Assembly (NCBI RefSeq): GCF_000787575.1
Contig: NW_012236513.1
Span: 248,001 to 312,000, forward strand
Origin: Acytostelium subglobosum LB1
Taxonomy: Eukaryota > Evosea > Eumycetozoa > Acytosteliales > Acytosteliaceae
DNA length: 64,000 bases
Direction of reading: 5' to 3'
In this document: positions 1,657 through 26,757 of the stretch, piece by piece
Position numbering within the stretch: position 1 is the stretch's first letter
How the letters are laid out: every line of letters starts with the position of its first letter
The notes under the pieces: model-generated
Told to the model about the DNA's origin: nothing
The model's input: the letters and a program-made list of their open reading frames with translations, nothing else
The model's database searches: none
Program-made: the position numbers and the translations under genes

Positions 1657-4600
1657 ATGAAGACAAGACAACAACATGTGGCAAAGACCTACAAAGTAGT
1701 ATGTATCTCAATTGATTGAATGATTGAATGAATGAGATAACTAACAACATTGATCAACAACAACAACAACATATAGGAGTCGGGCCAGAAACAGTTGATC
1801 GAACTACTCTTGAATGCTCCCGAAGATAGGATGTTTCAGTATATCATGCCAATCCAAGAATGGCCATTTGATATTGTAAGTTCAATCAATCAATCAACCG
1901 ATCAATGAATGATCATGTGTTCATTCACTCACTAACTCAATCATTATACAATCACAACAGGATGACATCAGTCATTGGAATGACCTGTTAGAGCGCTTTC
2001 AAGATATAACTCATCGAATCATTCATAAATATACACCTCCGTCCATTAGTGAGCTCATGCAACAGCAGCAACAGAGTGCCCACAACAAGAATGCGTCACA
2101 GCCACATGGACCTCCCTCATCCTATATTCCCGTTCTGATGCCACTGCCCGAGCAGGCCGCCGAGTTCAAAGTCGACAAAGACAACCTGATGCAGTTGCTC
2201 AAGTTCCTCAAGTTGTTGCTCTCCAATTGCAACAACAGTCATCTCTTCCACTCATCCGAGGTATGTTATATGTTTGATTGATTGATTGAATTACACATAC
2301 TAACTAATACTTGAACGTACATAACAACAGGAACTACTTCAACTATTCTCATTCAATGACTATGACGTCAACAGTGAGATATTGAAGATACTATATATAC
2401 TTTTGTCGGTGCCGAAATACATCAGAGAGAACGAATACTTTATCCACAATCATTTGAATCCTAGACTGAAGGTCTTTGCTACAGGCTTCCCCGAGAATCA
2501 TCTCGACCTCCTCTCCTGCTGTTCCAACGAGCTTGTTGTAAGTCCTCGCTCACTCCCTCACTCCTCCTCGCAATCATTCAACCATACTTACTCACTCAAT
2601 CAATCAATCAAACATATAGATACCATCATCTGTTACAAGCTTTAATGTAGAGTTCTATGAACGTACGGACAATATTGGTACATACGCCACAGCCATTGAC
2701 AATGCGAGTAAGATATCTGTGAGACTGGACAACGTCGACAGCAACCCTGACTCGGCGTTTGATATTGCCTACAAGGGCCTGTTTGCCAAGTACTCATTGT
2801 TTGAGGAGGATCAGTTCCACATCTTCTATCGCATCTCGCTGGCCAAGCAGTTTGGCGTGGTGGAGCAGCGCCACAAGTGGCTGCAGATGCGTCTGATGTC
2901 CATCAACGCGCTCTATCACACCACCGAGCAGGCCTACCACACACAGATCATGGTGGAGGAGCCCGACTTTGTAAACGAGCTGCTGGAGCTGCTCCGACGA
3001 CACATGGTCGTGCCACAGGACGTGCTGGTCGCGGCCGTCTACGCACTCTCTTCCATCTCACCTTCGTTCCTCAACGGTGTGCTGTCCAACACACTCAACT
3101 CGGCTCTGTCGCAGGGCTTCTTCCAGTCGATCGTGCGCAAGTGTGTGGCCGTCATCACAGGCAAGGTGCCCGCCGAGCACCCATTCAGCGTCAACTTTAT
3201 CAAGTCAATATTCAACCTATTGTTCACCATCTCCTCGCTGAACAAGGCGATCTTGCACAATTCGGGCATCTTCCAGTCGCTGCTGCCCATGCTCAAGCTG
3301 CACACCACGGTGGTCAGCACGATCAACTTCCAGCTGGCGACGTACCGCATCGTCGAGATGATGCTCTTCTTCAAGACACTTAACATTGAGATCTTTGGCG
3401 AGTCAGACAACTTGCGCGAGTTCATTCAGGGTCTCGGCAATGAGATTGACTACATGATCGCACATCCATACGTCGTCGACAAGAAGGAGGACATGGTGGT
3501 CGAGTGCAGCATCGCTCGGCCCACCTATGGCGTCGACAAGCATCGCTTCAAGAAGCCACCATTTGCCATCAGCAGCAGCAGCACCGCGCCAGCGTGGAAA
3601 CCCAAGCAACAGTTGGGTGGCGCATTCGACGAGACTCAAGTGGACAAGCGACTTTTCGAGGCCAACTACCCACTGCTGGTGACCAACAGGAAGATGTCAC
3701 TGGTGGTTGAGATGTTGCACACGCTGATACCAATTGTCAGCTCGAACGGTGTGCCAAGGACCATACTCAATCAGATCATCGACGGCTCCATCGCCGGACT
3801 GAAGCGTATCTTTGAGAACCACAGCAGCTTCTCGCCAATGATCCTGCTGCAGGCCATCATGCTGCCGACTCGCCTCATCCAGAATGAGCCGACCTGCTTC
3901 ACGGCGCTGCAGAGCAGCGGCCTGATCGGTGCGCTGTTTGACTACATCACCAACAACGAGCTGCCCAGCGAACTGATCTTTGTGATCACCAACGTGCTCA
4001 ACTCATTCTGTCTGAACTCGGCGTTCAAGCAGGTGTTGCTCGATTCACACTTCCTCGAGAAGTACATATCAGTGTTCTCCAACCCCAAGTACTCGATCAA
4101 CAATCGCACATCCAGTCCAGTGGCCGTAGGCCTGGTCGAACTCATCCGCCACCACAACGAGATGCGCCCAATCATCATTGACTCGTTTGTCAAGTTGCTC
4201 GATGATGTCCTCGCTCTGGACTTTGAGGGGGACAAGACCACGGTCAAGACCGTGTGTACTACAGTCGTCAGCCTGCTGACCGTGTTCTTCCGTGACGGCA
4301 GCGCCGTCGACAATGAGCGTGCGTTCATCCAGAAGGGCGGTCTTGACAAGCTGGTACAGATCTTCTCTCACCCAAGCTGTCCTACCAAGAGCTTTGTTGT
4401 CTTCAAGGAGCTTAGCGTGAACAACACATCGGCTGTTCTAAAGGAGATCATCAAGCAACTCAATCTGCAGTTTGGCGAGTTGGACCAGCTGTGCGGCTGG
4501 CGCACATCGCGTATAGTGCGCGATTGGGTCGAGCAGGAGGTGCAGAACAAGGACAAGATTCATCGCTCGATCCGCATCATTGGCTCATTGGTACAGATAC

Positions 4601-7600
4601 TCACTAGTCTCATCCGCGACCATCCCGAGGACATTCCCATCTCTGTCCTGGACGAGTGGGCTGTTGAGGCCGGCATTGCTGCCAGCTCCTCACTCAGCGC
4701 GCTCCAACGCGCACTCTATTGGGAGATGGTCATTGGAAACAATTCACTGTTATCGGCTCCCATCTCAAAGCGATCGGCACTATCACCCAAGCAACCTGTT
4801 GCCGTGGTCGCCGAGCCACCCGCGCCCGTCGCTGCCGCTGGCGGTGATGTTGAGATGTCCACCGCTTCTTCTTCATCATCTTCGTCCGTCACCAATGTCA
4901 CTGAGCAACACGAATTCCTGTTCAACAGCCAGATCGCAGACTTGGAGTATCTGTCGCACTACTTTGTCGACTGCCTCAATCCCCAGAACAAGCGCGAGTC
5001 ACTCACCGAGGCCAAGTCTGAGGTGTTCATCAAGAACATCGCCACCAACCTGTTCAATTGGCTTGCATGGCGCCCAGAGGATGACGACCCTTCCCTGGGT
5101 CTGTGCACCAAGTACACCGGTCACGTGATGGAGGAGATCTCCAAACTGTTGTTTGCCCACCTCATCAACAGCCTGCACAGCCTGGGTTTCTACGAGAAGT
5201 TCTTTGCCATTGTACATGAACTGCTGGCGCAATACCAAGGCGAGTCAAGCGATCTACACACACCACTCACAAACTGTGGCCGCATCATCAATGTCACTGT
5301 TCACGCTCTGACACTCAAGGCTCAGACCGCGCCAGTCAAGTTGATGGCCGAGCGCGTGCTGCCCACAGTGCTGGGCGAGGTGGCCAAGATCTGGGGCATG
5401 CCCCAATTGGCCCAGTACCCTCTGAAAAAGGACGTGCTCGAGGCGATCTACAACTTTTTGAACAAGCCAGAGGACCAGCCACTCGTAGAGAGACGGCCGG
5501 CCAAGCCAGCGCCGCAAGTGTTTGTACCAAGCGAGGCGGCTGTGTCTCTCCTGCAGGACATGGGCTTCCTCCGTGAGCACATCGTCAAGGGCATGAAGAC
5601 CCTACAATCAAACAACGTGGAGCAGGTCACAGACTGGATGTTGAACCATCCATATGTCCCAGAGGACGAGCCACCCAAGGCCACCGAGGCCGCACAGCCA
5701 GCAGTGGCAACACCACCAGCACCCAAAGAGAAGGAAAAGACGTCCCTCGAGACATTGGCGCTCGAGATCAAGCCGACATTGTTGGAGCGATCGCTCTCGT
5801 TGCTGACTGGCAGCGTTGTCGAGGACTTGCCACTATGTGAGAGTGTCTACCGAATGCTGGTCTTTATCACCAAGGATTGTAAGACACCAGAGGCCAAGGA
5901 GATGATTGTCGACCGCCTTATGAAGGAGGTTCAGCTTGCCTTTGGAGACTTCTCGATCGCAAACGCCAAGCAGCTCGTGGCCTACTTCAAGATTACCCAG
6001 CGCCTGAACGAACTACCCGACGTCCACGGCATGTACATAGACAAGGGCTTCCTGATGATTCTCGTTGGCTACCTCGCAGACCTACTGCATAACAAGTCAA
6101 CAGTCATCTTCCCCACCACCACCATCAGCGACGACAACAACAACAACAACAATGCGGATACACAACAGCAATGGCAGAGCTATTTGAACAGCTTGTTGCT
6201 GCTAATCATTGACATGGTCAGACTTGGCTCGATCAAGCCCAACACGTTTGAATTTGACGAGGAATTCAAGAAGGACGAGTCTGTGGACCCCGAGCTCAAC
6301 ATGCTTCTGGACAGCTGCATCAGCCTGCTCAAGGTGCCGCCATCGATCATCGATCTGACCCTGCTGCGGCTGACCAAGGAGCTGACAAAGAGACACGCGC
6401 TTGCCCTCCAATTCCTCGAGGAGGACGGTCTCACCCTTCTCTTTGCCAAGGTTTACGCCCCAAGCAACATTCGTGATGCGCAGCCAATCGCCAACGCCAT
6501 TGTTCGACAGATATTGGAGGACAAGGGCACTATGCTCAGGGCCGACCATACATTGATCAAGAACACACTTGGCTCAAACAGGAGCACCAAGGGCATGGCC
6601 ACAAAGACATTCTTGACCTCGTTAGCCAAGAACGTTGCACAGAACCCCGTGGTGTTCTTGCGTGCCAGTGCTGACCTGTGCCGTCTGAGCCAGAGCAGTA
6701 CCCTGGCGCTGGCAAAGACCCCAACGATCACAACCACCGACAGCTACGATGCCACCCACATCTTTAAGGTGTCCGAATTTTTGATCAAGGCACTGCTGGC
6801 CAAGGACTCGGTTCCTACACCAGCTCCAACCACAACAACAGGCGGCGAGCAAAAGAGACAGAGCACAATGAGCACATCGCGAGCTGCGGCCAAGGCAAAA
6901 TTTGACAACAAGGTGCAGCTTGAAGTAAACGAGTCCAAGACATTGTACACCAAGGCCAGCATCTTGAACTTGTTGGAGGAGCTCAATATCAACAATAGTG
7001 TATTCCTTCAAAACGTTCTGACATATCCCGAGGAGGACATCTTGCAGTATACCATGGACAACTTCTTGGTACCCGCGCCTAGTGACGGCCCCGCCATGCA
7101 CACGCACCACGCCTCAATTCGCTTCATCCTCTCGCTGTTTGGCAGCCAGATTGGCCGTAACCTAGTGATTGATTTCATCTCGAGAGACCTGACCAAGGCA
7201 AAGGGCGAGTACATTCTCACGCACGACAAGGCCGTCCAGAATCGTATCGTTTACCTCGTCAACCTCGTGGCGGTCATTCTCAACCTGCAACCACATGCGT
7301 ACACCAACGAGCTGTACCGCCTGATGGTCGAGCATGACATGATCAACCTGCTGCTAGAGGTGTTGGGTGCCATCGACATGAGCACCAACAACGCGTCGGT
7401 CATGGTGATCACCATGCTGCAGACAATCGGTCATCTTACCAAGTACGCATCCAACCCCGACAAGGACAAGGAGAAGGACGAGGGTCGCCTCAACATCTTT
7501 GAGCTTCCCCTGTCCAACTTTGACATCTACCTGAGGAACAGTCGCGACGCGATGTATGCCAACCCCCCATCATCTCGCAATGGCCAAGAGGAGAACGAAT

Positions 7601-10600
7601 GGCATTCGATGGGCAACACCTTCCTCCACAGCCTTAGCTCATCAATGCTGGGCGACCGACTTGCACTGAATCAGCGCGTGGTGCAGCAACCGGGCGGTGA
7701 CTATGATGACGACTCTGACGACAGCGACGACATGGATATCGATGGCCAGGACGACGACGAAGAGGACGACGACGAAGAGATGGACCAGGAGGACGACGAG
7801 GAAATCCCCGACGACGAGGAGGACGAAGAGATCGACGACGACATCTTTGACGGCGAAGAGTTTGCCGAGTTCCAAGACAACATACTGGGGCTCAACGTCA
7901 ACGATGCCCGAATGCTGTCCAATATCATCGACCCTGGCGTGCTTAACCAGCTACTGCAGATGAACAACGCTCTGCAGATGCCCCCACACTTTGATATCAA
8001 CAATCTGCCTCGACCAAGAGGTGTCCAGCTCCAGTACCCTATGTTCCCACAACAGCCCAACGCCGGTGTTGGCGTCAACATGAATGTGGTGCGCGAGCAG
8101 GACGACGTCAACTACGCACTCTCGTTCGAGCCGGATCTGATAAAGATCCTGTCCAAAATCACAAAGGAAGAGGAGGCTGCGCTCAAGCTCAAGGAGAAGG
8201 AGCTCAAGGCTAAGGAGAAGGCGTTGAAGCAGCAACAACAACAAGCATCGTCAGAGGCTTCGTCATCATCGATGCCACCCGCAACGGAGTCGACACAGGC
8301 CACTTCAACATCGAGTCCACAACTTCAGAGTAGCAACTCACAGGTGCCAATGGTGGTCGAGACAAGCAACTCAACCACGACACCGACGTTACAACCAATG
8401 CAATCGCCCCAAGTATCATCAGTATCGTCCCCATCGACTTCAGTGTCATCATCTGCATCATCAATGCCATCTTCCATCTCGCAGTCACCACTCTTGTTCA
8501 ATCCAGACATCGATCTCAATGTATGGAGGAACAACATGGATATCAATCAGATTGCGACCAACATTGTACAGCCACCAACCATCCCTACCAATGAGCAACA
8601 GCAACAGGATGCACCGCAATCACCAGCTGTAGTAGCAGCCGAGACAACCAACAATCAAGATGTTGATATGCATGAGGCAGAGGCAGAGGAGGAGGACGAG
8701 CCACAGTCTTCATCATCGTCTACGACCACAACGACAACCACCTCTACTACGACCACTTCTGAACCTGCCGCACCCCCTGCACCTGCCCCTTCAGCACCTC
8801 CAGTAGTCGCACCACAGCAGCCAGTCCAAGTTGATCTTGGCATTGACCCAACCTTCTTGGCTGAGCTCCCCGCTGAGCTTAGAGCAGAGGTCATCTCGGC
8901 CCAACTGGGAACGATCTATCAGACCGAGAACAGACCAGATATTGTGATCAACCCAGCCAGCATGGCTGTGCTGCCAGAGGAGATACGCAATCAGGTATTG
9001 GAGCAGCAGAGAGTGATCTCTCAGCGTTACAGAGCTGCCCCACCACCCGCCGACATCTCACACGCACAGGAGATGGACAACGCGTCGTTCCTGGCCACTC
9101 TCCCACCAGACTTGCGTGAGGAGGTGTTGATGAGCCAGCCCGAGGCATTCTTATCGACCCTCCCACCCGAGTTGCATGCCGAGGCCGTTCGTCTGCGTGA
9201 GCGTGATCGTTTCGAACTGCGCAATGCATTCGAGCGCAATGTCTATCTGCCGCGTGGCACTGCCATGAAGAATGCACCGTTGCCAAAGCCTAAGGCGTCA
9301 CTCAATCAGAGTGGTGAGTTGATAAAGAAGGAGAACTTGATACCCTTGCTCAAGATACTCTACCTCGACCAGCCATGGAATCGTCAGCAGTTCTACGCCA
9401 TCCTACAACAGATCTGCTCATTCACAGACAACAGGAACCAGCTGCTCCAGTATCTGTTCCAGATACTCACGGCGTGTGAGCGTCCCAACCTGCACCGTGG
9501 CGCCGTCAAAGACAACTTCTCGCCCCTGGACGACCCGTGCCACCCAACACTCAAGTTCAAGCACTTTAGGACGTTCGAGGAGGCTGATCACCCGCCCCTG
9601 CTGGTCATCCGTCGCATCTTGGACATTCTCCAGAATCTGATCTCCAACAACAGCAACACAGTACAGTGGGTTTGCACTGAGCAAACGATGCCACTGCCAC
9701 CCTCCAAGAAGGGAAAGGAGAAGGGCGATGCCAACGAGACATTCATGCCATTGTGGCGTCTGTGTTCACTCGTCTCCAATAAGGACATCGTCAGGAAGTC
9801 CTCGCATCTTGAGAAGCTGGTCACCATCTTCCTGTCCGTGCTGGACACGGTCAAGGAGGTGCCGACCTTCCCCAAGCAGTTCATCGACAGCTTCATCGAT
9901 GCCATGTTTGTGAGCGGCGACAATAAGGTGGCACTCCTACTTGTACATATTGGAACGACCGAACAGAACAGGGCCTCGACACTAGATGAGCTTACCTCCA
10001 CGGCCAAGAAGCTTGTTCACAAGGTGATCCACAACCTCAACAGTCTAAAGTCATCGTTCAAGGAGTCTTCAGGAGGAGTGTCGCCGTCTCTCATCGTGTC
10101 ACTGTTGCCCAACTCGACCAATGAGCAGAACCTGCTTCAAACACTCCAGACCATGTCCTTGATATTGGCGCCCAAGAAGGAGGTCCCTCCAGCTGCTGCT
10201 GCTGCTCCACAAGCTGCCGCGCCACAAGCTGCTGCGCCACAGGCTGTTGTAGCACCACAGGCTCCTCCAGCAGATGCAGTTGTCGAACCAGCAGTCAATC
10301 AACCAGACCAAATGGTCATCGAGCCACAAGAATCTGTTTCCACCACCACCACTACGACTACTACCACAACAACGACATCATCGTCAACATCATCGAAAGC
10401 TGAACCAAAGATCACGACTATTGGCGAGCACTTCAAGTACAACCCAGAGTTTGAGACATTGTGGGATGCAATCAAGTCATTCCTCACGTATATCAACGCG
10501 ACTGAGAAGCACGATCAGCCAGAGCCAAACAAACCCAAGCAGCTTACAAAGAAGAAGAATTCCAGCGTACCCATGTCCAACTTGGTGCTGCCACTCATCG

Positions 10601-12055
10601 AGATATACTTCCATTTGAACTCGCCCAACCCAGAGAAGCTCAATGTCAACACAGTGCCCTCGTCGCCAAGTCTGACCGGACTGAAGCTGTCATCACAGGG
10701 CACCAACACACCGCCAGCCGCCGACTACCAGACGATGCGATTCTTTGAGTTTGTCGAGCAGAACAAGAACCTGATCAACGACCTTGTGCGCCAGGACAAC
10801 TCCCTACTCAGTGGCTCGTGCAAGATCCTGGTGAAGCTGCCTCGTTTCCTGGACTTTGACAACAAGCGAACATATTTTAGACAGTTCTTCCAATCAAAGA
10901 AGGATCGTGCCAACTCAATCCGACTCAAGATTCGCAGGAACCACATCTTTGAGGACTCGTACACACAGCTGCGCATGCGCCCTGCCGATGAGTTCAAGGG
11001 CAAGCTGCACATCCAGTTCTCAGGCGAGGAGGGCATTGACGTGGGTGGTCTGCTGCGTGAGTGGTACCTGGTGCTCTCCAGAGAGATGTTCAACCCAGGC
11101 TACGCCCTGTTCAAGACATCCGCGGACAATGTCACCTTCCAGCCCAACCCCGAGTCATACATCAACCCGGACCATCTGTCCTACTTCAAGTTCATTGGAC
11201 GCATCATTGGCAAGGCGCTCTACGACGGACAGATGCTCGACGCCTTCTTCACGCGTAGCTTCTATAAGCACATGTTGGGTCTGCCCATCACCGTGACCGA
11301 CATGGAGGCGATCGACCCCACCTACCACAAGAACCTCATCTGGATTCTCAACAACGACATCACCAATGTGCTCGACCTGACCTTCTCGACTGAGATCGAT
11401 ATCTTTGACTCGACACGCGTCATTGAGCTCAAGCCGGATGGCGCCAACATCCAGGTGACTGAGGACAATAAGATGGAGTATGTGCGATTGGTGGCCAACG
11501 TACGAATGACCAACTCGATCAAGGAGCAGATTGCCAGCTTCCTGGAGGGCTTCCACGAGCTCATCCCCAAGACATTGATCAGCATCTTCAACGAGCTCGA
11601 GCTCGAGCTGCTCATCTCTGGTCTCCCAGAGATCGACATTGACGACCTGCGCGCCAACACAGAGTACAGCGGATACACGGCTGAGTCGTCTCAGATCAAT
11701 TGGTTCTGGAGTGTTGTACAGAACCTAAGCAACGAGGAGAAGGCCTTGCTACTTCAGTTTGTCACTGGTACTTCAAAGGTGCCACTTGATGGATTCAAGG
11801 CATTGATAGGCATGACAGGTCTACAGCGATTCCAGATACACAGGATCAGAGGAAATGCTCATAGATTACCTACTGCTCATACTTGGTAAGTTTGTTGATT
11901 GATTGAATGATTGACCATGATGATAGTATCTAACATTATTTATTCTTTATAGCTTTAATCAAATAGATCTGCCCGAATATGATTCAGCGGAACAACTGGA
12001 GAAGATGCTCAAGATTGCCATTAGCGAGAACTCTGAAGGATTTGGATTCCATTGA
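1657..12055 (+). CDS. huwe1: HUWE1/Tom1-type HECT E3 ubiquitin ligase
   Basis: This gene encodes a giant E3 ligase that passes ubiquitin from an E2 to substrates through a thioester on its HECT cysteine. Six exons read in one frame (1657–1698, 1777–1875, 1961–2260, 2331–2537, 2620–11885, 11953–12055), giving 3,338 residues, close to yeast Tom1 and shorter than human HUWE1. The N-terminus matches the family around the LLERFQDIT region and continues as a helical, armadillo-like half (DUF908/DUF913 type). A UBA domain (LLQDMGF) lies near residues 1187–1226, and a strongly acidic stretch near 1910–1965. Ubiquitin-binding LP-type motifs (LPAELRAEV, LPPDLREEV, LPPELHAEA) lie near 2289–2407. The HECT domain covers roughly the last 340 residues and ends EGFGFH. 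The catalytic Cys, in LPTAHTCFN, is residue about 3305, and its codon is split by the last intron. Poly-Q, Ser and Thr tracts are typical of dictyostelids. The frame has no breaks. Nuclear and cytosolic action is known for the family. Confidence 0.96.
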
Positions 12056-15783: not shown

Positions 15784-18700
15784 TTAATTTGATCTAATTA
15801 ATTGAGATATAATTATCTCTAGATGTTGAATGGTATTAATCGAAAGACATCCTGCCATTGAATGTTTGTTCCACCAGGCAAGACAAGTGTTCATATCAAC
15901 TTTGGACTCCACACCCTCCGACATCTCTGTGAAGACTTGTGCCCATTCCTCTTGAATGTTCTGGATAACCATCTGTTCCACTCTTCCAGCGATCAACTTT
16001 GCCATCCTTGCGTTGGCTGTGTAGCTTGTTGTTGCTGCCGAGTTTTTGTTGTTGTTGTTGTTAACATCTGGAGATTGATGATGTTGTTGTGGATCAAATG
16101 ATACTGAACATGTACTCCAAAATGATGTCCACAGTTGATGAGTGCATTGACACTTTGAGTACTTGTTGGCTGTGTGACTACCATCGATCATATATTGAAT
16201 GATCGTCTCAAACTCGTTGCTGCGACAAGTTGATCGTATCTTGTCCATTAGCTCGTAGAACATGTTGAGTATATCATCAGTTTGATCACCCAGCAGTTTC
16301 TTCACTCTTGCCTCTGATACAGCCTTGCATGATCTAGTCCTTGATTGATCAAGTACCTCGTTGATGTTGAGCATGTGTTTCGCCGCTTGAATGGCACCAA
16401 CATACTCTCTATTGAGTCCACTCTCCAAACAGATGATGCGGGATGATCCTGGCTGTCCTTGTCGTCCTGCTCGTCCAACACCTTGGTTCTCCACTCTACT
16501 GTTGCTTGGGTAGAATCCAACGATCACATGCAATCCACCTGCCTTTAGTGACTCTGCTGTCAGCTTGATGTCTGTTCCTCGACCAGCTGTGTTGGTCGCA
16601 ACTGTTACGCGACCAGGCTCACCAGCATGGGTAACCACATAGTCCTCGTCCTCTTGTTGGAACTCATTGAGTAGCTGAGCATGTATGTCACCAGCTCTGA
16701 GCAATGGTATGAATTTTTGGCTGTCCTCGATAGTGGGCAGGAGTACGAGGACGGGTCTGCCCTTTGCCACGGCAAAGAACTGCACCTCCTGGCATACTGC
16801 GTTCTGGAAGTCGGTCACAGTGTTGCACAGCTGCATCGGAAGTGATTCGCGCTCTGAAGGACGGTAGCTCACCACGTTAAAGCTGTCAACGTTGTAAACC
16901 TGTCTGAGCTCATTACGTTCGAACTGGTCACCACACGTGCCTGTGAGACCAAAGAGACATTCATATCGCTTAAAGTATGATGGATGAGAGATAGCTGTGG
17001 CCGTGAGGCTGCCCCGTGCGGCAGGGAGATCATGCTTGACCTCTAGGAACTCGTGAAGGCCACCACAATGTCTGCATCCAAAGAATAGTCGACCAGTGTT
17101 CTCCTTGTCCACAATGACCACCGTCTTCTTGCCTGATGCCCTGTCCTCCACAAGTGTTGTCACAGCATAGTCATGATCCTCCTTGAGCTCGAATGACTTG
17201 AGTGCGTGTATCAACAACTGTTTGACCTTTGCTTCACTCAATGCTTGTGCCCATTCAATCGCTCGGTTGATACCTTGGGCATCGAATGGTAGCTTGTGGG
17301 CAGCATCCACCATCACCTGTCTTGCCTTGATCACATGATTGTTGGTCACTGGGATGGTGACATGGGCGTGTGCATAGAGTGAGAGTGGCTTGAAGATGAA
17401 GCTGTGATCGGTTGACATGGTGATGGCCAGACGTGCAGAGCTGAGTGAAGTGTCAATGACTGAGATCACTTGGGTGCAGTACGGGAACACGCCAAACTGG
17501 TACAGAATGAGCCAACGCAGCCTGGCAAGCATTTCAGCAGCGATGTCTGGCGCATTAATGAGTGGGCGAGAATGTCTGGGCACCTTTGTCGCCAGCTCTT
17601 TAAGGCGATCAATCAATGTTTGTTGAGGATCTTTGTCCATCGATTGCTGCAACTGAACAATCTTGAGATAGATTCGGTGGGTCGTGTCCATATCCAGTTT
17701 TGAAAGAGGATATTGGTTGTGATCGATGTTGGTGAATCGATTCCAGAACTCGGTGAACTCTTTCTGTTTGAGCTTGCCCTCAATATCCTTGCTCTGGTGA
17801 CTGGACAACAATTTGGTGATGCTGTCAAAGTTGTTGGAACTGTTCCAGATGGTTGTGCGGGGTATTGATCTGGCCCACGGTGACAGGAGCTGTTGGATCA
17901 AACTGAGCATGGCCTGGATTGATTGAGCGCCTGTAAGGGTCATATTGCGATCGACTGTGATCATTGATTGAATGAATGATGGAATAGAGAAATGACCGAT
18001 TACTCTACAAAGTGATGGAGTGAGTGAGATGATCTGATCAATGTGGCCAGCTGCCTCCATGTCACCATTAATCAATATATCTTGGTAGTCGTCCAACAAC
18101 AGAGTGTTCAGGTACTTGATCAATGATGTCTTGCAACTTGTTGGTAGTTCGTGGATTGGGTCCATTGCGAGGAGACGTCGAAGGCTGGCCAGTAGCTGAA
18201 CGATGAATGATGGATGCGTGTGGTTGAATTCCAGCAGGCTCATGCGAGCAAACACATCAAGTATGAGTGCAGAGCACAAACAATCATTCTGCACATGTCT
18301 GGCGTTGTGTGAGGCGGACGTGGCCAGGACTGTCTGGCATGTGACGAGATGACTGTCTTTGACGGCGTGTCGGACCAGGTACTCGATGTGATCGTTGGCG
18401 CGGGGGTAGTAGGTCGAGAACTGCGGCCTGGAAATGTCTGAGTCGGCCTTGTTTGTTGAGTGAATCAATAGCCAATTGTAGGTTGCGACGTCCACTCTTG
18501 AGTTGGAACGACAACTGGATGTGTCGAGGTGGTCGCGAGAGATAGGCGATGGAGTCAATGCCATGATCTTCGATCAGGGTTGTAAGAGAGTCGACAAACT
18601 TTGTGAACGAGGCCACGGCATCAATGACGTTGTCATGGTCAAGATGGAATCGATGTGTTGCTGTGAAGTGGACCAAGAACCAATCAAACAATGTCTTGTT

Positions 18701-21700
18701 CCTGGGATGCAGATCCAAGATACGGGACAACAGTGTGACGAACTTGCTGTCAAAGAGTGGGCCGATGAATGCCCATGACATGCCAATTGCTTTGTCGAAT
18801 GATTTGAGCAACCCGTCATGGGATGGAGCGCTCGACATGGCTGTGAAACACTTGTGAAGATCAATGATGGCAGTCTTTGGCAAACTGTCCACATTGCACG
18901 CGAACTGATTGAGTTTGCCTATGAACTCTGGACTGAGCTTGTCAAGACACAGTCTCCAGAATGATCGTACGTCATTGTCATTGACGCGAGCGATATCGAA
19001 TGTTTGTGATCGAGAAGTGATCAGCTCAAGTGGTCCTGTAAATGTTGATTGATCGTTCTTTGTTGAATGGACATTCATCCATCGAATGTTGATAATGTCA
19101 ACACTCTTGATGCGAGTGAAACCGAGAAGCTTGGCCACCGCGTCCATGCTATGACCTTGCACTCGTGGGTCCATTATCCTAGTCTTGCCCAACATATCCA
19201 TGAACACCTTCAACTCTGGATGCTTGTGTGCGAGGAGGTCTGGTTTGATTGATCGATCACCAAAGATTATCAACAACTTGCACAAGTACTCGACGGTCGA
19301 CCATGGCAACTTGGTGTTGCTATTGATGAATGATGTGATGAGCTCGAGTGCATACTGTCCACTGATCACGCACTTGGGATACACTTGCATCAGACATAAT
19401 GAAGTTGGGATGTGTCCTCCGTGAAGTGCCAGCTGCAGGGCAGAGCGACCGCCAGCCGACCGCTCATTATGTCCGAGCAGCGAAGAGTAGCTCTCTTCAG
19501 GGTTGTCATTGTAATGAATGATACGCAGCAGCGTGATGATGAACTTGGTATTACCAAGTGATGCGGCCAACTGGATTGGCGTGAATTGATCGACTTGTCT
19601 GGCGAGTCCAAGGTTCACACCAATGTCCACCAACAATCCAGTGATTCGATGACAGTTGAACTGTGCGGCAATGTGCAATGCGTTCATTGTGCTGGCTGGG
19701 TCGACGGTCAGTAGGTCGTGGGCGCTCTCCAGGGCGCCAATCATACTTGGGTCATCAGCCTTCACAACAGTCTGCCACAAGCTATCGATTGGAGAATGGA
19801 CGAACGAAGTAAGCAAGTCGATCAGTCCGATCCTGTTACATTTGATCGCGTTCTCCAGTGGGGTGACGGTGCTGCCTGGTTCCTCAGCCATTCCAATCTC
19901 ATCAATCACCTTGATCATGGTGCCACGACTAGCATTGGCGAGCACAGGAAGACTGATCGTTGACGATAGGTTCTCCAAATAGATAGTCTTGATCTTCTTT
20001 GTACTCCTAAGTTGATGCACTGGTGACGTGTCCGAGTCCGAGTCCTTGGGTCCCTTGAAGATCGGTTCAATCAACCTTCGATGTGTGATCATTGACATGA
20101 GGTTGGTGGTGTTGTCTCCATTACATGCCCATTTGATTGATTGGGCAGCATCCTGTTGACCGCCTAACTGGAGCAGGTTGTGGACGTATTGATGCAGGCT
20201 TGGACTACAAACAATGCGATCGAGGATGTAGATACCCTTGTTGGTGGGAGTTGATATTATTGCTCGCGAGTATGGCAACAGGGCATCGATGATCTCCCTT
20301 GGTCGCTCGTTGGTCCTGTCGAATGCGTAGTACAACGCTGATGCGCCGTTGATGTTGAGCCGGGTGGCATCAGCGCGACTGTACAACAATGCTTTGACGG
20401 CTGAGATGTTGCCGGAGGCCGCGGCACTCATGAGTGGCGTACCGAGATACTCGTCAACACTATCAACCCACTGTGCGAACCTCTTGTAGTAGCGACTGGA
20501 AGGGTTGAGCCAGTGTGCGACCCACGTTGATGATGATCGACTGCTGGCACTGTGCAACATCAAGATGTCCATTGATTCAGAGGGGCGTGCAAAGAACTCG
20601 TCGTCCGCTGTGTTACCGCCCAAGTCATATCCGAATGAGTTTGCGAGGCACTCCAGGGGCTTGAGTCGGTTGGGCTGGTCCTTGAATTCCTTGAACAATC
20701 CTTGAAGCTTTGCTGGTGGCAGGTATGGCAGCAACAACTCCCAAAAGGTCATTCTGGACAGTGTCCCGGTAGTTGCGTCATCATCAACATTGACGATGTG
20801 GCCGAGACATGACAAGGGCGCCTTTTGATTGAACATGTGAGTGAGTGTGTCCTGATCCAGGCTGTCGTAGAGTATTGATAACTTGGCAATGATGCTGCCT
20901 ACACCACTACACAAGAGGAAGATGAGTCCATTGTCCAGAGGACTACATCCTTTGCTCACGAGGTATTTAAATGTCCTGCCACAGTGATGGGAGAGTGCAT
21001 GATGTAGCAGTGGCAGTGATGGCGCTGTGCCCTCGTGGTCCAATGGGAATCTGATCTGATCGAGATTATGTTCCACCGCCATGGTAGTGAGAATTTGGAG
21101 TGCCTTTGAATCATCCTTCATCGTGAATGCCTTGCCCAATGATTTGATCAGCTTTGGACTGATCGTCTGGAACTGGGGTATAGGTACATGAAGGTGTTCT
21201 GGCGGCGATTGGCCATCAACCTTGGACAAAAGTGTCCAACAACGGGATGCCTCCATGAATGAACAATATCCATATATTGAGGCGTCTGATGGAATGTTCT
21301 TTGATGACAATGACACGAGTGAATATGTTTGAACAGGGTCAAGGTCAACATGCTTGATGAATATGTCCAACATTTGTTCATTATCAGTGTTGATGGCTGT
21401 GAATGCTGCCAATGCAAAATGGTCCACGGTGAAGGGCCATTGGCTGAGATGACGTGCCATCACCATGTTGTTGGACTGCACAGCTTCGATCAACAATGAC
21501 GATGGAGGTAACACCAGCAAAGGATGGTTAGGCTGGCCAATCTGCGGGCGCAATGCGTTGAGTGCCAGCGTCATCTCCTCGACCAACACCTTTTTGGCCA
21601 ATATTCTGCGAGCATCGTGCTGCAACGCCATGCGGTAGATGTGGAGGTACAATGTCTGGCGTAAGGTCTGATGCTTGGTCTCCTTGACATTGTCGTTGGG

Positions 21701-24700
21701 CGTGACACGTGATTGATCAAGTACATGATTGAGCGCAGTGGCATAGGCACGAATCGATTTGACATTGTCCATCATGATGGCAGCGTCGAGGAAAGACAAT
21801 GGTGACTTTAAGTTGAGTGCGGGGACCAGTTGCAGACCATGACTCTGGAGCTGAGGTAGCAGTGTGTGTTGCCCAGTGGCCAGGATGACAATGAGTGTCG
21901 TGTTGCCAAAGGGGTCCAATGCTCGGTTGAGATCGCCAGCACACCATGTTGTGGAAATGGCATTGATCATTCGAGGCGAGCGACTTAGCAAAGCGTAGTA
22001 CAACAAGTATGTGCCATTCTCTGGTTGAACAACGTATGGTACTGATTGATTGATTGGTGCGCTGATCAGATGATGGATCATCAAGTCCAAGCATTCAACA
22101 CTGCCATTGTAGGCGGCCAGCTCCAGAATGGTCAACGTGCGACTAACTAACTCGTTGGGCAAGATGGTATTGAAGCGAGGCCAGTGGAGATCTGGTGGGG
22201 GTATCGACTCCATCCATTTGGACAAGATGCCCACATGGTTGGCCTTGACCCCTGCCTCGATATACTCATCGATTGAGTACGGTCTCATTCTCTTTGTAAG
22301 GTAATCGATCATCTGATGATCCTTCTGCAACAAAGCCCACGCAAAGTATGAGTAGAATGTGTTTGGAAGCATGATGTGTGGCTCCACAGTGCAACCAACC
22401 AGCTCGAGGAGAGTGGTGTGACAATGGAGTATGATGAGGTCCAGCAGCGACATGCCCTCCTTGTCTTTGTGATCCCAACTCTCTTGGCCGAGTGCAATCA
22501 ATCTATGAGCAATGTCCGTGTATCCGCGGGATACTGCCAGCATGGTGGCGGTTGAGCCCTTCGAGTTGACAAAGGTCTTGTGGCGGGATGACTGTACACT
22601 TTGACTGACGATATCATTGTCATTGCCATCCAGACGAGTGTTGGCCGTGTGCCCACACTTGTCGAGTATGAGTCTGGCCAACTCTGGTTGTGATGTCTCC
22701 AATGCCAAGATGAGGGGCGTGGACCCATTGAGTTGTTGTATACCACATGAGTATCCAACATCAATGAGCAAGTCCACAACATTGTATGATCGATACTCGA
22801 CTGCAACATGTAGTGCTGTGCCCTGTGATGGCAGCAGACGATCAATGTGCTCGGCCAGCAGTCCTGAATCAAACAATCTCTTTAGGAATGATGTTTGATT
22901 GAGTGATGCCGCCACTTCAATTGGAGAGTAACCATCTGATTTCCTCGCGATGGACAACGACGCGTCATTATGAGCAAGAAGGAATGCGATCTCCTCTTGG
23001 TCAGTCTCCAGCGCGACATGTAGACATGTGTTCTCATCATTTAGTTGTAGGTGGGTGTCTACTTGGTTTGTTTGGATTGAGTTGATGAGCTTGATGGCAA
23101 TATGTTCGTGTCCTTCGAGAATGGCGGAGTACAGGGGGAATATCTTGTCATTGTCCTGAAGCTGTGCGTTGGCGCCATGTCTCAGGAGTACCTGCACACA
23201 CTCCAGATTGTTCTTGAGGACAGCGCATGCCAACGCCGTCAATCCGCTCTGGTTGCGGGCGTCAATGTGAGTGGACTTGGTCGCCTCGACCATCAATGCC
23301 AATGCCTGGTGATGACCCCTTGTCGCTGCTATGTGCATGAATGTGTTGCCGGCCTCGTCTAAATGAGTGAGCAGTTCAGGGTTCTTGCAGCATTGTTTGA
23401 GATGATATAACTCTGACACCTTGCGGTCAAAGTCTGGCGACATGACCCAGAGTCGGAAAGCCACAGGATCAGAGGGTAGGACCATGTCTCTATATTTGTC
23501 ATCGACTAGATCGTCGTCACCCATGTCGATCACTGTCTCGGGCCCATCCCATGGCACAATGTCGAGTGTGATGGCGTTCATTCGGACTGAACCGGGCGAC
23601 ACCTTGGACAAGAGAGCGTGGTCGATTTGAGTCCAGATGTGTTGGTGATCCATAGTAGTCTCGTTGACAAATGTTGCCAACTCTTGGCATTGCTCTTGGT
23701 TGAGTGACTTGAATGAGGTCACCTTCTGTTGAGTAAATGTGAGTCCGCATCCACCCCACACTCTATGCTTATCGACGCCAGAGTCAAGGTACTCCTGATT
23801 GGCAATGTCAAACTTTGATGCATAGATGTTGCCAAGTGGTGGTGGAGGTGGGGGCGATTGAGTGTCCAAAGCTGGAGAATGAGGACTCGCACCCTTCTTC
23901 TTCGAGGCCGTATCGGCCAAGTGAAGTCGTTGCTGGATTGAGTCCACTTCACCACCAATTGTTGAGAACAGGTCTGTGTCATCTCCATCCAGAGCTTCCA
24001 GTAGATCATCGGGCTTGGTGCACAACTTAAATGTACCGTCGGCAAGAAGCATATCATACTTGAACTGTGCTTCCACTCGATCACACCTCTCGCTCGAAAA
24101 TATGCTGTAGAAGTCATCGAACAGTTCTTCGATCGTCAACTCATCCTTGTCCATGTGCATCTCCAAGAACTCTGCACAATTTGGTTCGAGCTTGGCATTG
24201 GCGCGGCAGACTGAGGCAAGGTCGAACACCGAAACAGTGTGTTTGGTGGGGTCGGCCATGCATCCCGAACACGACCCTGACTTGTGGATATCCATTATTG
24301 AGTCAAAGACCTTCATCATTGAACTAATTGTATCATCCAATCCAAGACCAGCCTTCCTCATCTCCTCAATGAACATGCCAACAACTGGATGAGGGTCCAA
24401 CCTCTTACTCAACTCGAGTGATGGTAACTAATGATTGATTGATTGATTGAGTGAATGAGTGAGTGATGGTTAGGGTTTGATGGAGACGGTATGGAGGTCG
24501 AAGAAAACTTACAAACTTATTGATGTCAGGATTGAACTCGCTTGACTTGGGCAAGGGCGCTGAGTGCTGATGGTTGGGATTGAGCTCCTCCAATTGCTTG
24601 AGGAATGGATGGATGCGGGCCAAGATATGACCCATGTATATGTTGCTAAAGATTCTACTCTCTGTTGCCAATATCATCATAAACTTCTTGGTCAGTTCTC

Positions 24701-26757
24701 TGACGTATGGTGCCAGGTCAATGAGTTGGCGAGCGTCAATATCCAGATTGTTCAATTGTTCGTTGAGTAACCTATTGATGATAGTTGACACGACTGTTGA
24801 CATGGCCGCAACATCTCCATCACCATCGCCAAAGAATGAACGTTTGAAGTACTCTGTCAAAGTCATCAATGATTGATTGTCGGCGGCGATCTCCTTGGAA
24901 ACAGACTTAACAATCAATGTGACTGTCTTCTCCTGGTAGGAACGAACGGGGAGAGGTGGCAGCAGACCAGGAGTGCGCTTGCCCACGGCCTTCCACAATA
25001 CCTTGGACAGGTCGGGTATCTGTCCATTGGCCTTGAGTGTGTGGAGATAGGACGAGAGGAATGAGATCAGACTGAGCATCGAGAAGTACTTGCGACAGGG
25101 CTGAAGCTGGGGTAACTGTACGTGGATAGCATTGGCAGCTTCAGAGTACAGCTCGTTCTGGACATTAAAGCCGTGTGGCATACCACCAAACACGGCTGCG
25201 TACGCGGTGAGGAACTGTTGGTAGATGGGCGTGGGCTCCATCGTGTAGGCCACCTTGAAGTCGCCATCCATCAGCCAAACGCCGTCGACACACTGCGCCG
25301 ACTTCTCCTCGGCTAGGATACGGAACGACGTCTGATACAACAGACCCTTCTCCTCTTTGATCTTGTTGTATACCTTGCGCAACACTTGTACGGCTTCACC
25401 ATTGGCTGTGCCCTCGGCCTGTCTCATCTGGCCCTCAAGCTTGTCGATCGCAGCTTGGCCCTCGATGCCCATCTCAAAAGCACGTTCTCTGAGTGATCGA
25501 TAGTGTACGCGGTCTTTGAGATCGGTCCACTGACCAACATTCAACTCTCGCTTGATGTCCACCATGAACGCGCGGAGCACTTCTTCCTGGAGTGTACGTT
25601 GAAGGCCATCATCCCGATCCCACTCATCGACATTCTCCTCGAGCATGAAGCCACCATTGAGGAAGCCCTTCATGTAGTAGTCCAGTATGAGGATGACGTG
25701 GCCCACCAAGGTGTTGGCGTAGGCCGGGTGTATGACTGGGAACATCGTACCATCATTGTTGAAGTGCAACGAGAAGAAGGGCATGGTGTCGTGGTAGTAG
25801 ACACCATCGATCAGCTCGGTGAGTATCTGATGGAACTCGTCGGCCGATACCGAGTCTGCGATTGGACGAATCTTGATGTGATCGGGCGCGAGGATGACGT
25901 GAGAGGGCCGTGTGACAAAGGCCATGTTGTCAGCCCAGCCTGTGAACAGTCCAGCAGTGACAGCCACGCCACCAATGCTCTTTGATGCGCCATGTCCGCG
26001 AGTCTCTGCAAAGTGCTGATGAAAAGTCTTGTTCGGATTAGATCCCTTGTAGCTATTGATCAAGTTCAACTTGACCAACTGCTGAGCGAACTTCTCAATC
26101 GATCCTTCGTCATCAATAGTGATTGACTGTTTGTTGTTGATGTTGTTGTTTTGGTTGTTGTTGTTGTTGTTGTTGCCACCACCACCACCGCCACCACCTC
26201 CATTGCCACTGCCACTTCGATCGCCGCGGTAGGTACTGCCTCGCAGCACTGTGCATCTCTTTGAAGCGCATTAACCTCTCTTGAGGGTCCCTGATGGTCA
26301 ACAACTTGTCGAGTGCCTCCTTCCACAGACGGTTGTAGACAGGGTGCGCCTGATGCACGAGAGTCCGAGTCGTGAAGGTATCGGACTTGTCACCAACCTG
26401 ATTAGGCATCAACTTGATGTTGGCGAATTGATTGATGAACCTGTCGTTGACGTCGAATTGGGCATTGGGCCACATCGCTTGCGCAACCATTGTTACCGCC
26501 GGATGGTTCTTGAATGTCTTTGGACATATGTGATGGGCATCGACTCGAGACCAATTCATCCAACGTCCATTCTTGAGTTCTCTCAGAAACCTCGGTATTC
26601 TTCGATATAATACATCTTTAAATAGTGAACCTTTATAAACATAATGAGGATCATCATACTCTTTACCCCTATCGTTCGTTCGTTAAATTCAATCAAACAA
26701 GTTAATAAATAATTATTCGAAATAAACTCGAGACTTATTAACTTACTCTTCAGACAT
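15784..26757 (-). CDS. giant ankyrin-repeat protein with SecA-like motor half and AHH nuclease-like N-terminus
   Basis: Exon 1 is 11 bases (26747–26757, starting MSEE), followed by introns 26669–26746 and 24428–24512 and a very long last exon; in all about 3,600 residues. The N-terminal block (about 26300–26560) has DAHHICP, then Asn residues, and HQAHPVY about 60 residues later, as in the AHH family of HNH/ENDO VII-fold nucleases. A Gly/Asn linker follows. An unrecognised domain of about 500 residues covers about 24520–26060. Ankyrin repeats fill much of 23380–22270, with more near 20470–20250 and 19830–19390 (LHVAVEYRSYNVVDLL, LHIAAQFNCHRITGLL). The C-terminal part matches the second half of bacterial SecA: LFGLTGTCGD (about 16935–16955), TNTAGRGTDIKL (16561–16596) and GRAGRQGQPGSSR (about 16435–16480). 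No Walker A or DEAD-type first motor half is visible, so ATP-driven translocation is unlikely. The gene is interrupted about twice in this assembly and may be partly decayed. No close named relative is known to me, and I infer no function. Confidence 0.75.

What the first reader, a model, noticed from the sequence alone, without database searches (positions are those of the whole stretch)
15784..26757. SecA-motor half fused to ankyrin repeats in a social amoeba
The C-terminal part carries clear SecA second-half motifs (LTGT, TNTAGRGTDI, GRAGRQGQPGSSR) in a spliced nuclear gene that also holds many ankyrin repeats. SecA is a bacterial and plastid secretion ATPase and dictyostelids have no plastid. 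The architecture suggests an acquired bacterial domain turned to another use, perhaps in host–bacterium conflict or as a scaffold. The gene is interrupted about twice here, so it may be decaying.
Basis: partly seen in the sequence, partly recalled or inferred. Interest (0 to 1): 0.9.

Follow-up and report, generated by a model that had tools for sequence, protein, structure and literature searches.

The report
Amoeba gene with dead secretion motor
A social amoeba carries, in its own nucleus, a giant gene related to proteins of amoeba-dwelling bacteria; it joins a nuclease domain, ankyrin repeats and a secretion-motor domain that has lost its fuel-binding half, and it may be either a young broken gene or one put to a new use.

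Summary
Minus-strand gene 26757-15784 of Acytostelium subglobosum (annotated SAMD00019534_089340) has two good introns, an ankyrin array and a SecA-derived C-terminal half (SecA P-loop E 5.8e-27; generic helicase 9.7e-5). (1) The N-terminus is an AHH nuclease, whose motif the public model cuts off. (2) A ~400-residue domain without a Pfam family marks a protein family found mainly in Legionellales and Chlamydiae (21 of 25 loci): 14 of 140 genomes of Legionella nautarum's family, 16 of 151 of a chlamydial phylum, 2 of 398 of Legionella's phylum. There the ankyrin protein and a SecA-like ATPase are neighbouring genes (12 of 16 loci read). One metagenome protein, P0237, has the amoeba's order AHH-domain-ankyrin-SecA. 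(3) The amoeba copy lacks Walker A and B, lost in frame; 130 of 131 relatives keep both. So it should not be an ATP-driven motor. Two frame changes stand in the assembly, yet 3,574 other codons hold no stop. Best reading: a shared ankyrin-SecA giant, motor-dead, either young wreck or ATP-independent protein. Eukaryotic SecA-like giants were already known; this is a new variant.

The parts
26747..26757 (-). exon 1 (ATG, 11 nt)
   Evidence: sequence read; joins exon 2 in frame
26669..26746 (-). intron 1, 78 nt, GC 0.26
   Evidence: GTAAGT donor, GATAG acceptor
26287..26574 (-). AHH (HNH/EndoVII) nuclease domain with its [AG]HH, N, H, H, Y residues
   Evidence: PF14412 E 3.5e-8; only one found in the genome; residues aligned
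26113..26270 (-). frame change between the AHH frame and the middle-domain frame (the public model bridges it with a 61-nt intron 26275-26215, GC 0.56)
24900..26099 (-). conserved middle domain (motifs PFFSLHFN, LDYYMKGFLNGG), no Pfam family
   Evidence: BLAST to 34 of 306 other proteins held; alignment; model pLDDT 78.4, pTM 0.81
24428..24512 (-). intron 2, 85 nt, GC 0.40, GTAAGT...ATTAG
19355..23362 (-). ankyrin repeat array (within open frame 24427-18287)
   Evidence: PF12796 E 3.9e-49, 7 stretches; last repeat by BLAST
18284..18573 (-). frame change between ankyrin and SecA frames, near the place where bacteria have a gene boundary (public model: intron 18599-18515, GC 0.52)
17458..18405 (-). 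helical region homologous to the N-terminus of the SecA-like proteins, upstream of their Walker A
   Evidence: hhalign probability 98%, E 1.1e-12, 285 columns; reversed-sequence control 0.1%
17457..17458 (-). junction of an in-frame loss that removes Walker A through Walker B
   Evidence: alignments
17041..17277 (-). SecA preprotein cross-linking domain, partial
   Evidence: PF01043 E 1.7e-5
16396..16833 (-). SecA second nucleotide-binding fold (P-loop_SecA), with TNTAGRGTDI and GRAGRQG

Best explanation
The gene is a nuclear copy of a giant protein family shared with bacteria that live in amoebae. In those bacteria an ankyrin protein carrying the conserved middle domain is encoded next to its own SecA-like ATPase, which probably drives or switches the big partner (inferred). 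In the amoeba the two are one gene region, tipped with an AHH nuclease, but the ATP-binding half of the SecA part is deleted. Shown: domain order, relatives, introns, the loss of Walker A and B. Inferred: the gene came by horizontal transfer, it can no longer work as an ATP-driven motor, and what is left would act, if made, by ankyrin binding and nucleic-acid cutting without ATP. Whether it is made whole is open: I give about even odds to a recently disabled gene and to a protein kept for an ATP-independent use.
For: Middle domain, ankyrins and SecA in this order in P0192 (Candidatus Jidaibacter acanthamoeba), P0233 (Monosiga) and metagenome proteins; AHH before the same three parts in P0237. 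Close-by genes in 12 of 16 bacterial loci read, 9 of them directly next to each other. 25 loci in the bacterial genome collection: 15 chlamydial, 5 Legionella or Legionellaceae, 5 others; 14 of 140, 16 of 151 and 2 of 398 genomes. The window grouped with canonical SecA is rejected, AU p 0.0198. 130 of 131 relatives keep Walker A, 131 of 131 Walker B; the window keeps neither. The remaining parts still model as SecA. Other genes of the window are of ordinary amoeba kinds (HECT ligase, bromodomain, FNIP).
Against: The direction of transfer is not settled: the window's place inside the group differs between trees, and a clade of the window with the other amoeba SecA giants is not rejected (p 0.312). 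Nuclease tips are rare: AHH in 3 of the 119 other listed relatives by the precomputed domains, no known effector domain on 10 bacterial and 7 other N-termini. No expression data were available here. The deletion was seen in one assembly only. The nearest frames on both sides gave no Pfam family.
Confidence: 0.68

Rival explanations
1. Young pseudogene: the captured gene is no longer under selection; the deletion and both frame changes are real lesions.
For: Two frame changes and a motor loss seen in none of 131 relatives; both public introns that bridge the frame changes are GC-rich (0.56, 0.52) against 0.26 and 0.40 for the two good introns, and codon scores in the ankyrin frame stay positive inside most of the second one; AHH similarity seems, weakly, to run on past the first one's donor; the assembly is Sanger plus Illumina (PMC4334915, passages).
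Against: No stop in 3,574 codons outside the frame changes, which bounds neutral change at about 0.7% per site; the deletion is in frame.
Confidence: 0.4
2. Domesticated, motor-free protein: the ATPase half was dropped and the AHH-ankyrin part is kept as an ATP-independent nuclease or scaffold; the frame changes are assembly errors or unusual introns.
For: AHH catalytic residues kept; long open frames; in-frame deletion; no stops.
Against: No positive sign of selection or expression; would need two errors in a Sanger plus Illumina assembly, or two GC-rich introns.
Confidence: 0.35
3. Two genes, not one: the frame change at 18573-18284 is the old boundary between a bacterial ankyrin gene and its SecA gene, and the two are read separately.
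For: The SecA frame from ORF residue 57 equals the whole N-terminus of Legionella-type SecA partners; bacterial pairs overlap or abut.
Against: The ankyrin frame runs about 300 residues past the last repeat seen; other SecA partners have longer N-termini (Walker A at 454-660 of the open frame in 6 of 12), so the boundary may lie further up. Promoters were not looked for.
Confidence: 0.12
4. Working SecA-type translocase retained by the amoeba.
For: SecA fold retained in the second half.
Against: No Walker A or B; the missing part was not found elsewhere in the genome.
Confidence: 0.03

Closest known systems
Eukaryote-like SecA giants (wBol1_1091/1092 and insect and protist homologues; Duplouy et al. 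2013, PMC3639933; phage WO module, PMC5062602; passages read; first author recalled)
   Same: Very long proteins with a non-canonical SecA domain outside plastids, moving between bacteria and eukaryotes
   Different: The passages I read tell of no middle domain, AHH tip or motor loss; mosquito and ant members fall in another tree group
Other A. subglobosum SecA giants SAMD00019534_001180 and _001220, Heterostelium 'helicase'
   Same: Dictyostelid SecA-like proteins in long single frames
   Different: P-loop start with a GTPase-like motif (MMR_HSR1 below cut-off), Walker A and B present, no ankyrin or middle-domain match; long separate branch
Middle-domain ankyrin protein plus SecA-like ATPase gene pairs of Legionella, Chlamydiae and others
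   Same: Same parts, usually in the same order
   Different: Two genes, Walker motifs intact, no AHH found on 10 N-termini scanned
P0237, metagenome protein of 3,432 residues
   Same: AHH, middle domain, ankyrins, SecA in the same order
   Different: One open frame, full SecA_DEAD (profile 11-288 of 290)
Polymorphic toxins with AHH (Zhang et al. 2012, PMC3482391, passages read) and giant actinobacterial toxins with SecA-like domains thought to aid secretion (PMC8195603, passages read)
   Same: AHH nuclease as an exchangeable tip; ankyrin repeats and SecA-like parts noted in effectors or toxins of conflict systems
   Different: Toxin tips there are usually C-terminal and paired with immunity proteins; here AHH is N-terminal and no immunity gene was sought

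Membership tests
SecA ATPase | SecA-type second nucleotide fold above cut-off | tested here: met
SecA ATPase | curated cut-offs of canonical SecA or SecA2 models | tested here: not met
   best 182.3 bits against a cut-off of 862
SecA ATPase | Walker A and Walker B of the first nucleotide fold | tested here: not met
   absent in the window; present in 130 and 131 of 131 relatives
SecA ATPase | preprotein cross-linking domain | tested here: met
   PF01043 25.8 bits, cut-off 23.5, profile 36-110 of 110
SecA ATPase | ATP-driven protein movement | not testable with these tools
   no assay; expected lost
AHH nuclease (PF14412) | profile score above cut-off | tested here: met
   33.9 bits, cut-off 22.3
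AHH nuclease (PF14412) | [AG]HH, N, H, H, Y residues (list from PMC3482391) | tested here: met
   alignment of four sequences; activity not tested
Middle-domain ankyrin-SecA family (defined here) | middle domain with ankyrins and SecA-like part | tested here: met
Middle-domain ankyrin-SecA family (defined here) | intact ATPase partner | tested here: not met
Polymorphic toxin system | exchangeable effector tips on a common body | tested here: inconclusive
   AHH in P0237 and Scabin-like domain in P0253; no known effector domain on 10 bacterial and 7 other N-termini
Polymorphic toxin system | adjacent immunity gene | not tested
   no search for immunity genes was made
A solved fold for the middle domain | structural match over most of the domain | tested here: inconclusive

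The most novel reading that the evidence does not exclude
The middle-domain ankyrin protein and its neighbouring SecA-like ATPase form an undescribed two-part conflict machine of amoeba-dwelling bacteria, in which the SecA part moves or unfolds the giant partner; a social amoeba captured the fused, nuclease-tipped form, removed the engine and keeps the nuclease and ankyrins as its own defence or regulatory protein.
Probability: 0.22. Interest if true: 0.85.

Novelty: new variant of a known kind. Interest (0 to 1): 0.6.

Why it matters
SecA is thought of as a bacterial and plastid secretion motor. Here its fold is a module of giant proteins shared by a social amoeba and bacteria of amoeba-dwelling groups, with a conserved domain that no Pfam model covers and a gene pair in Legionella and Chlamydiae that points to a working partnership. 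The amoeba copy is a natural experiment: engine removed, rest kept open. It makes a concrete question testable, namely what these SecA-like proteins do away from the usual Sec channel, and which part of the giant matters.

Tried and rejected
Generic DEAD helicase: rejected, SecA profiles and SecA structures score far higher. Relatives in viruses: four scans of the viral collection gave none. Recent duplicate of the amoeba's own SecA giants: unlikely, 38-39% identity over about 85 residues, although a joint clade is not rejected. Missing ATPase part elsewhere in the genome: the SecA_DEAD profile rings only in the two C55 giants and in this gene's own remnant. Crude motif counts of Walker sites (both in 76 of 119, and misses in 4 of 12 partners) were replaced by a profile alignment, as the first script often looked in the wrong stretch and used narrow patterns. 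A third clade test (window with P0237) did not finish. Middle domain: no Pfam family, only one weak SAP hit below its cut-off in 1 of 9 members, no PDB sequence match better than E 0.34, no firm structural match. AHH part against PDB sequences: none at E 1. Literature: nine searches listed no paper that I could recognise, from titles, abstract starts and the passages opened, as telling of this gene, the middle domain or the ankyrin/SecA pair; most subscription papers are not held. One search was swamped by rye (Secale) papers.
Full report
What is there. The stretch 26757-15784, minus strand, is one gene region of the social amoeba Acytostelium subglobosum LB1. Reading from the start: a tiny first exon, an AT-rich intron, an AHH nuclease domain (PF14412 E 3.5e-8, above cut-off), a first frame change, a conserved middle domain, an 85-nt intron, an ankyrin array (PF12796 E 3.9e-49), a second frame change, and a SecA part. 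Only one AHH domain and one middle domain were found in the genome (exon-by-exon searches).

The missing engine. Alignment with 15 relatives shows the window jumping from the segment before Walker A to the segment after Walker B. A profile of that core, run on the 119 other long relatives listed and on 12 bacterial partners, found Walker A in 130 of 131 (P0201 reads GEGKA) and Walker B in 131 of 131; in the window both are gap. The missing piece was not found elsewhere in the genome with the SecA_DEAD profile. The loss is in frame. By established knowledge of SecA, without these motifs the first fold cannot bind and hydrolyse ATP, so this copy should not be a working motor (inference).

Relatives. 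A search for long proteins with the window's SecA part gave 339 hits, of which the 120 best are listed. Many carry ankyrins and SecA: Candidatus Jidaibacter acanthamoeba, Monosiga brevicollis, two further protist-collection proteins (P0234, P0246), many metagenome proteins. Of 306 other proteins held, 34 match the middle domain at E 0.05 or better. P0237 has AHH at residues 12-92, then middle domain, ankyrins and full SecA. Other relatives carry other tips: a Scabin-like domain at the N-terminus of P0253, and AHH, Ntox17 or an endonuclease at the C-terminus of P0292, P0297, P0299 and P0308. Such tips are the exception: AHH is on 3 of the 119 by precomputed domains, and 10 bacterial and 7 other N-termini gave no known effector domain (one of the 7, P0212, has a glycine zipper).

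Bacterial gene pairs. A scan of 84,980 bacterial and archaeal species genomes with the middle domain gave 25 loci (three of them from one MAG): 15 chlamydial, 5 Legionella or Legionellaceae, and one each from a Coxiella MAG, a gammaproteobacterial MAG, Verrucomicrobia, Neisseriaceae and Margulisbacteria. I read 16 of the 25 for neighbours; 12 have a SecA-like gene close by: directly downstream in 8, directly upstream in 1, and with one or two small frames between in 3. The 4 misses are L028 (3.8-kb contig), L029 (contig ends soon after), L041 (match near a contig end) and L036 (domain split over two frames, no SecA in the 5 kb that follow). That these are amoeba-dwelling groups is general knowledge. 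The pair in bacteria and the fusion elsewhere suggest that the two parts work together (inference).

Tree. 105 of 106 SecA regions, 285 columns (P0117 dropped for coverage). Canonical SecA forms one side (99/89). The window lies among ankyrin-linked forms, but its nearest neighbour differs between the quick tree (P0203 and P0223, 84) and the careful one (P0190, 94/66), and the bootstrap had not settled. Window with canonical SecA is rejected (p 0.0198); window with the C55-type eukaryotic clade is not (p 0.312). So a place outside canonical SecA is supported, the direction of transfer is not.

The frame changes. Codon scoring places the switches near 26265-26230 and 18450-18400. The public model bridges both with GT-AG introns, 26275-26215 and 18599-18515, and starts inside the AHH domain. 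Those bridges have GC 0.56 and 0.52, the two good introns 0.26 and 0.40; AHH similarity seems, weakly, to continue past the first bridge's donor. The second change lies near the border between the ankyrin frame and the region that equals the N-terminus of Legionella-type SecA partners (hhalign 98%, E 1.1e-12; 255 residues of the ankyrin-frame tail and a reversed control give nothing), so an old gene boundary is a rival reading, though 6 of 12 partners have longer N-termini. Outside these places 3,574 codons hold no stop; with about 408 expected per unit of neutral divergence, neutral drift is bounded near 0.7% per site. Any decay is therefore young, or the frame changes are not in the living genome. 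The published assembly is Sanger plus Illumina (PMC4334915, passages).

What is known. Giant SecA-domain proteins in insects, protists and Wolbachia, and their exchange, were described in 2013 (PMC3639933, passages; it names Polysphondylium and Tetrahymena among hits) and in phage WO (PMC5062602, passages). SecA-like parts in Amoebophilus effectors and AHH as a toxin family are in PMC3482391 (passages); SecA-like domains in giant actinobacterial toxins, thought to aid secretion, in PMC8195603 (passages). A Legionella fallonii SecA DEAD-like protein is listed among horizontally acquired eukaryote-type proteins in PMC4256840 (passages). My nine searches listed nothing that I could recognise as the middle domain, the gene pair, or a motor-less nuclease-tipped member.

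Verdict. New here are the AHH tip, the shared middle domain with its distribution, the bacterial gene pair, and the clean loss of the ATP-binding core. I rate it a new variant of a known kind.

Noticed in passing
G000 contig C55:270998-292033 (L015, L016): Two giant proteins in long single frames and one shorter relative in tandem; the two giants have a P-loop, GTPase-like start (below the Pfam cut-off) and a SecA-like end with Walker A and B.
   Followed up: partly
G000 contig C55:292652-302865 (L014:1690-3687 scanned): Proteins alike to one with a delta-endotoxin N-domain (PF03945, E 1.6e-32; one scanned) lie right after the SecA tandem.
   Followed up: no
window 26747-26757 and 26287-26574: The public gene model SAMD00019534_089340 starts inside the AHH domain and misses its AHH motif.
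   Followed up: yes
L017-L041: Middle-domain ankyrin gene and SecA-like ATPase gene lie close together in Legionella, Chlamydiae and others.
   Followed up: partly
P0196-P0198, P0206, P0216, P0279, P0301: SecA-like domain with a ubiquitin C-terminal hydrolase domain (PF00443) in 7 of 119 listed relatives.
   Followed up: no
P0292, P0297, P0299, P0308: SecA-like giants that end in an AHH, Ntox17 or endonuclease domain.
   Followed up: partly
window 2620-11886, plus strand: A 3,089-codon open frame with a HECT ubiquitin-ligase end and UBM motifs.
   Followed up: no
window 26099-24900: The middle domain gives a confident model (pTM 0.81) without a firm match among solved structures.
   Followed up: partly
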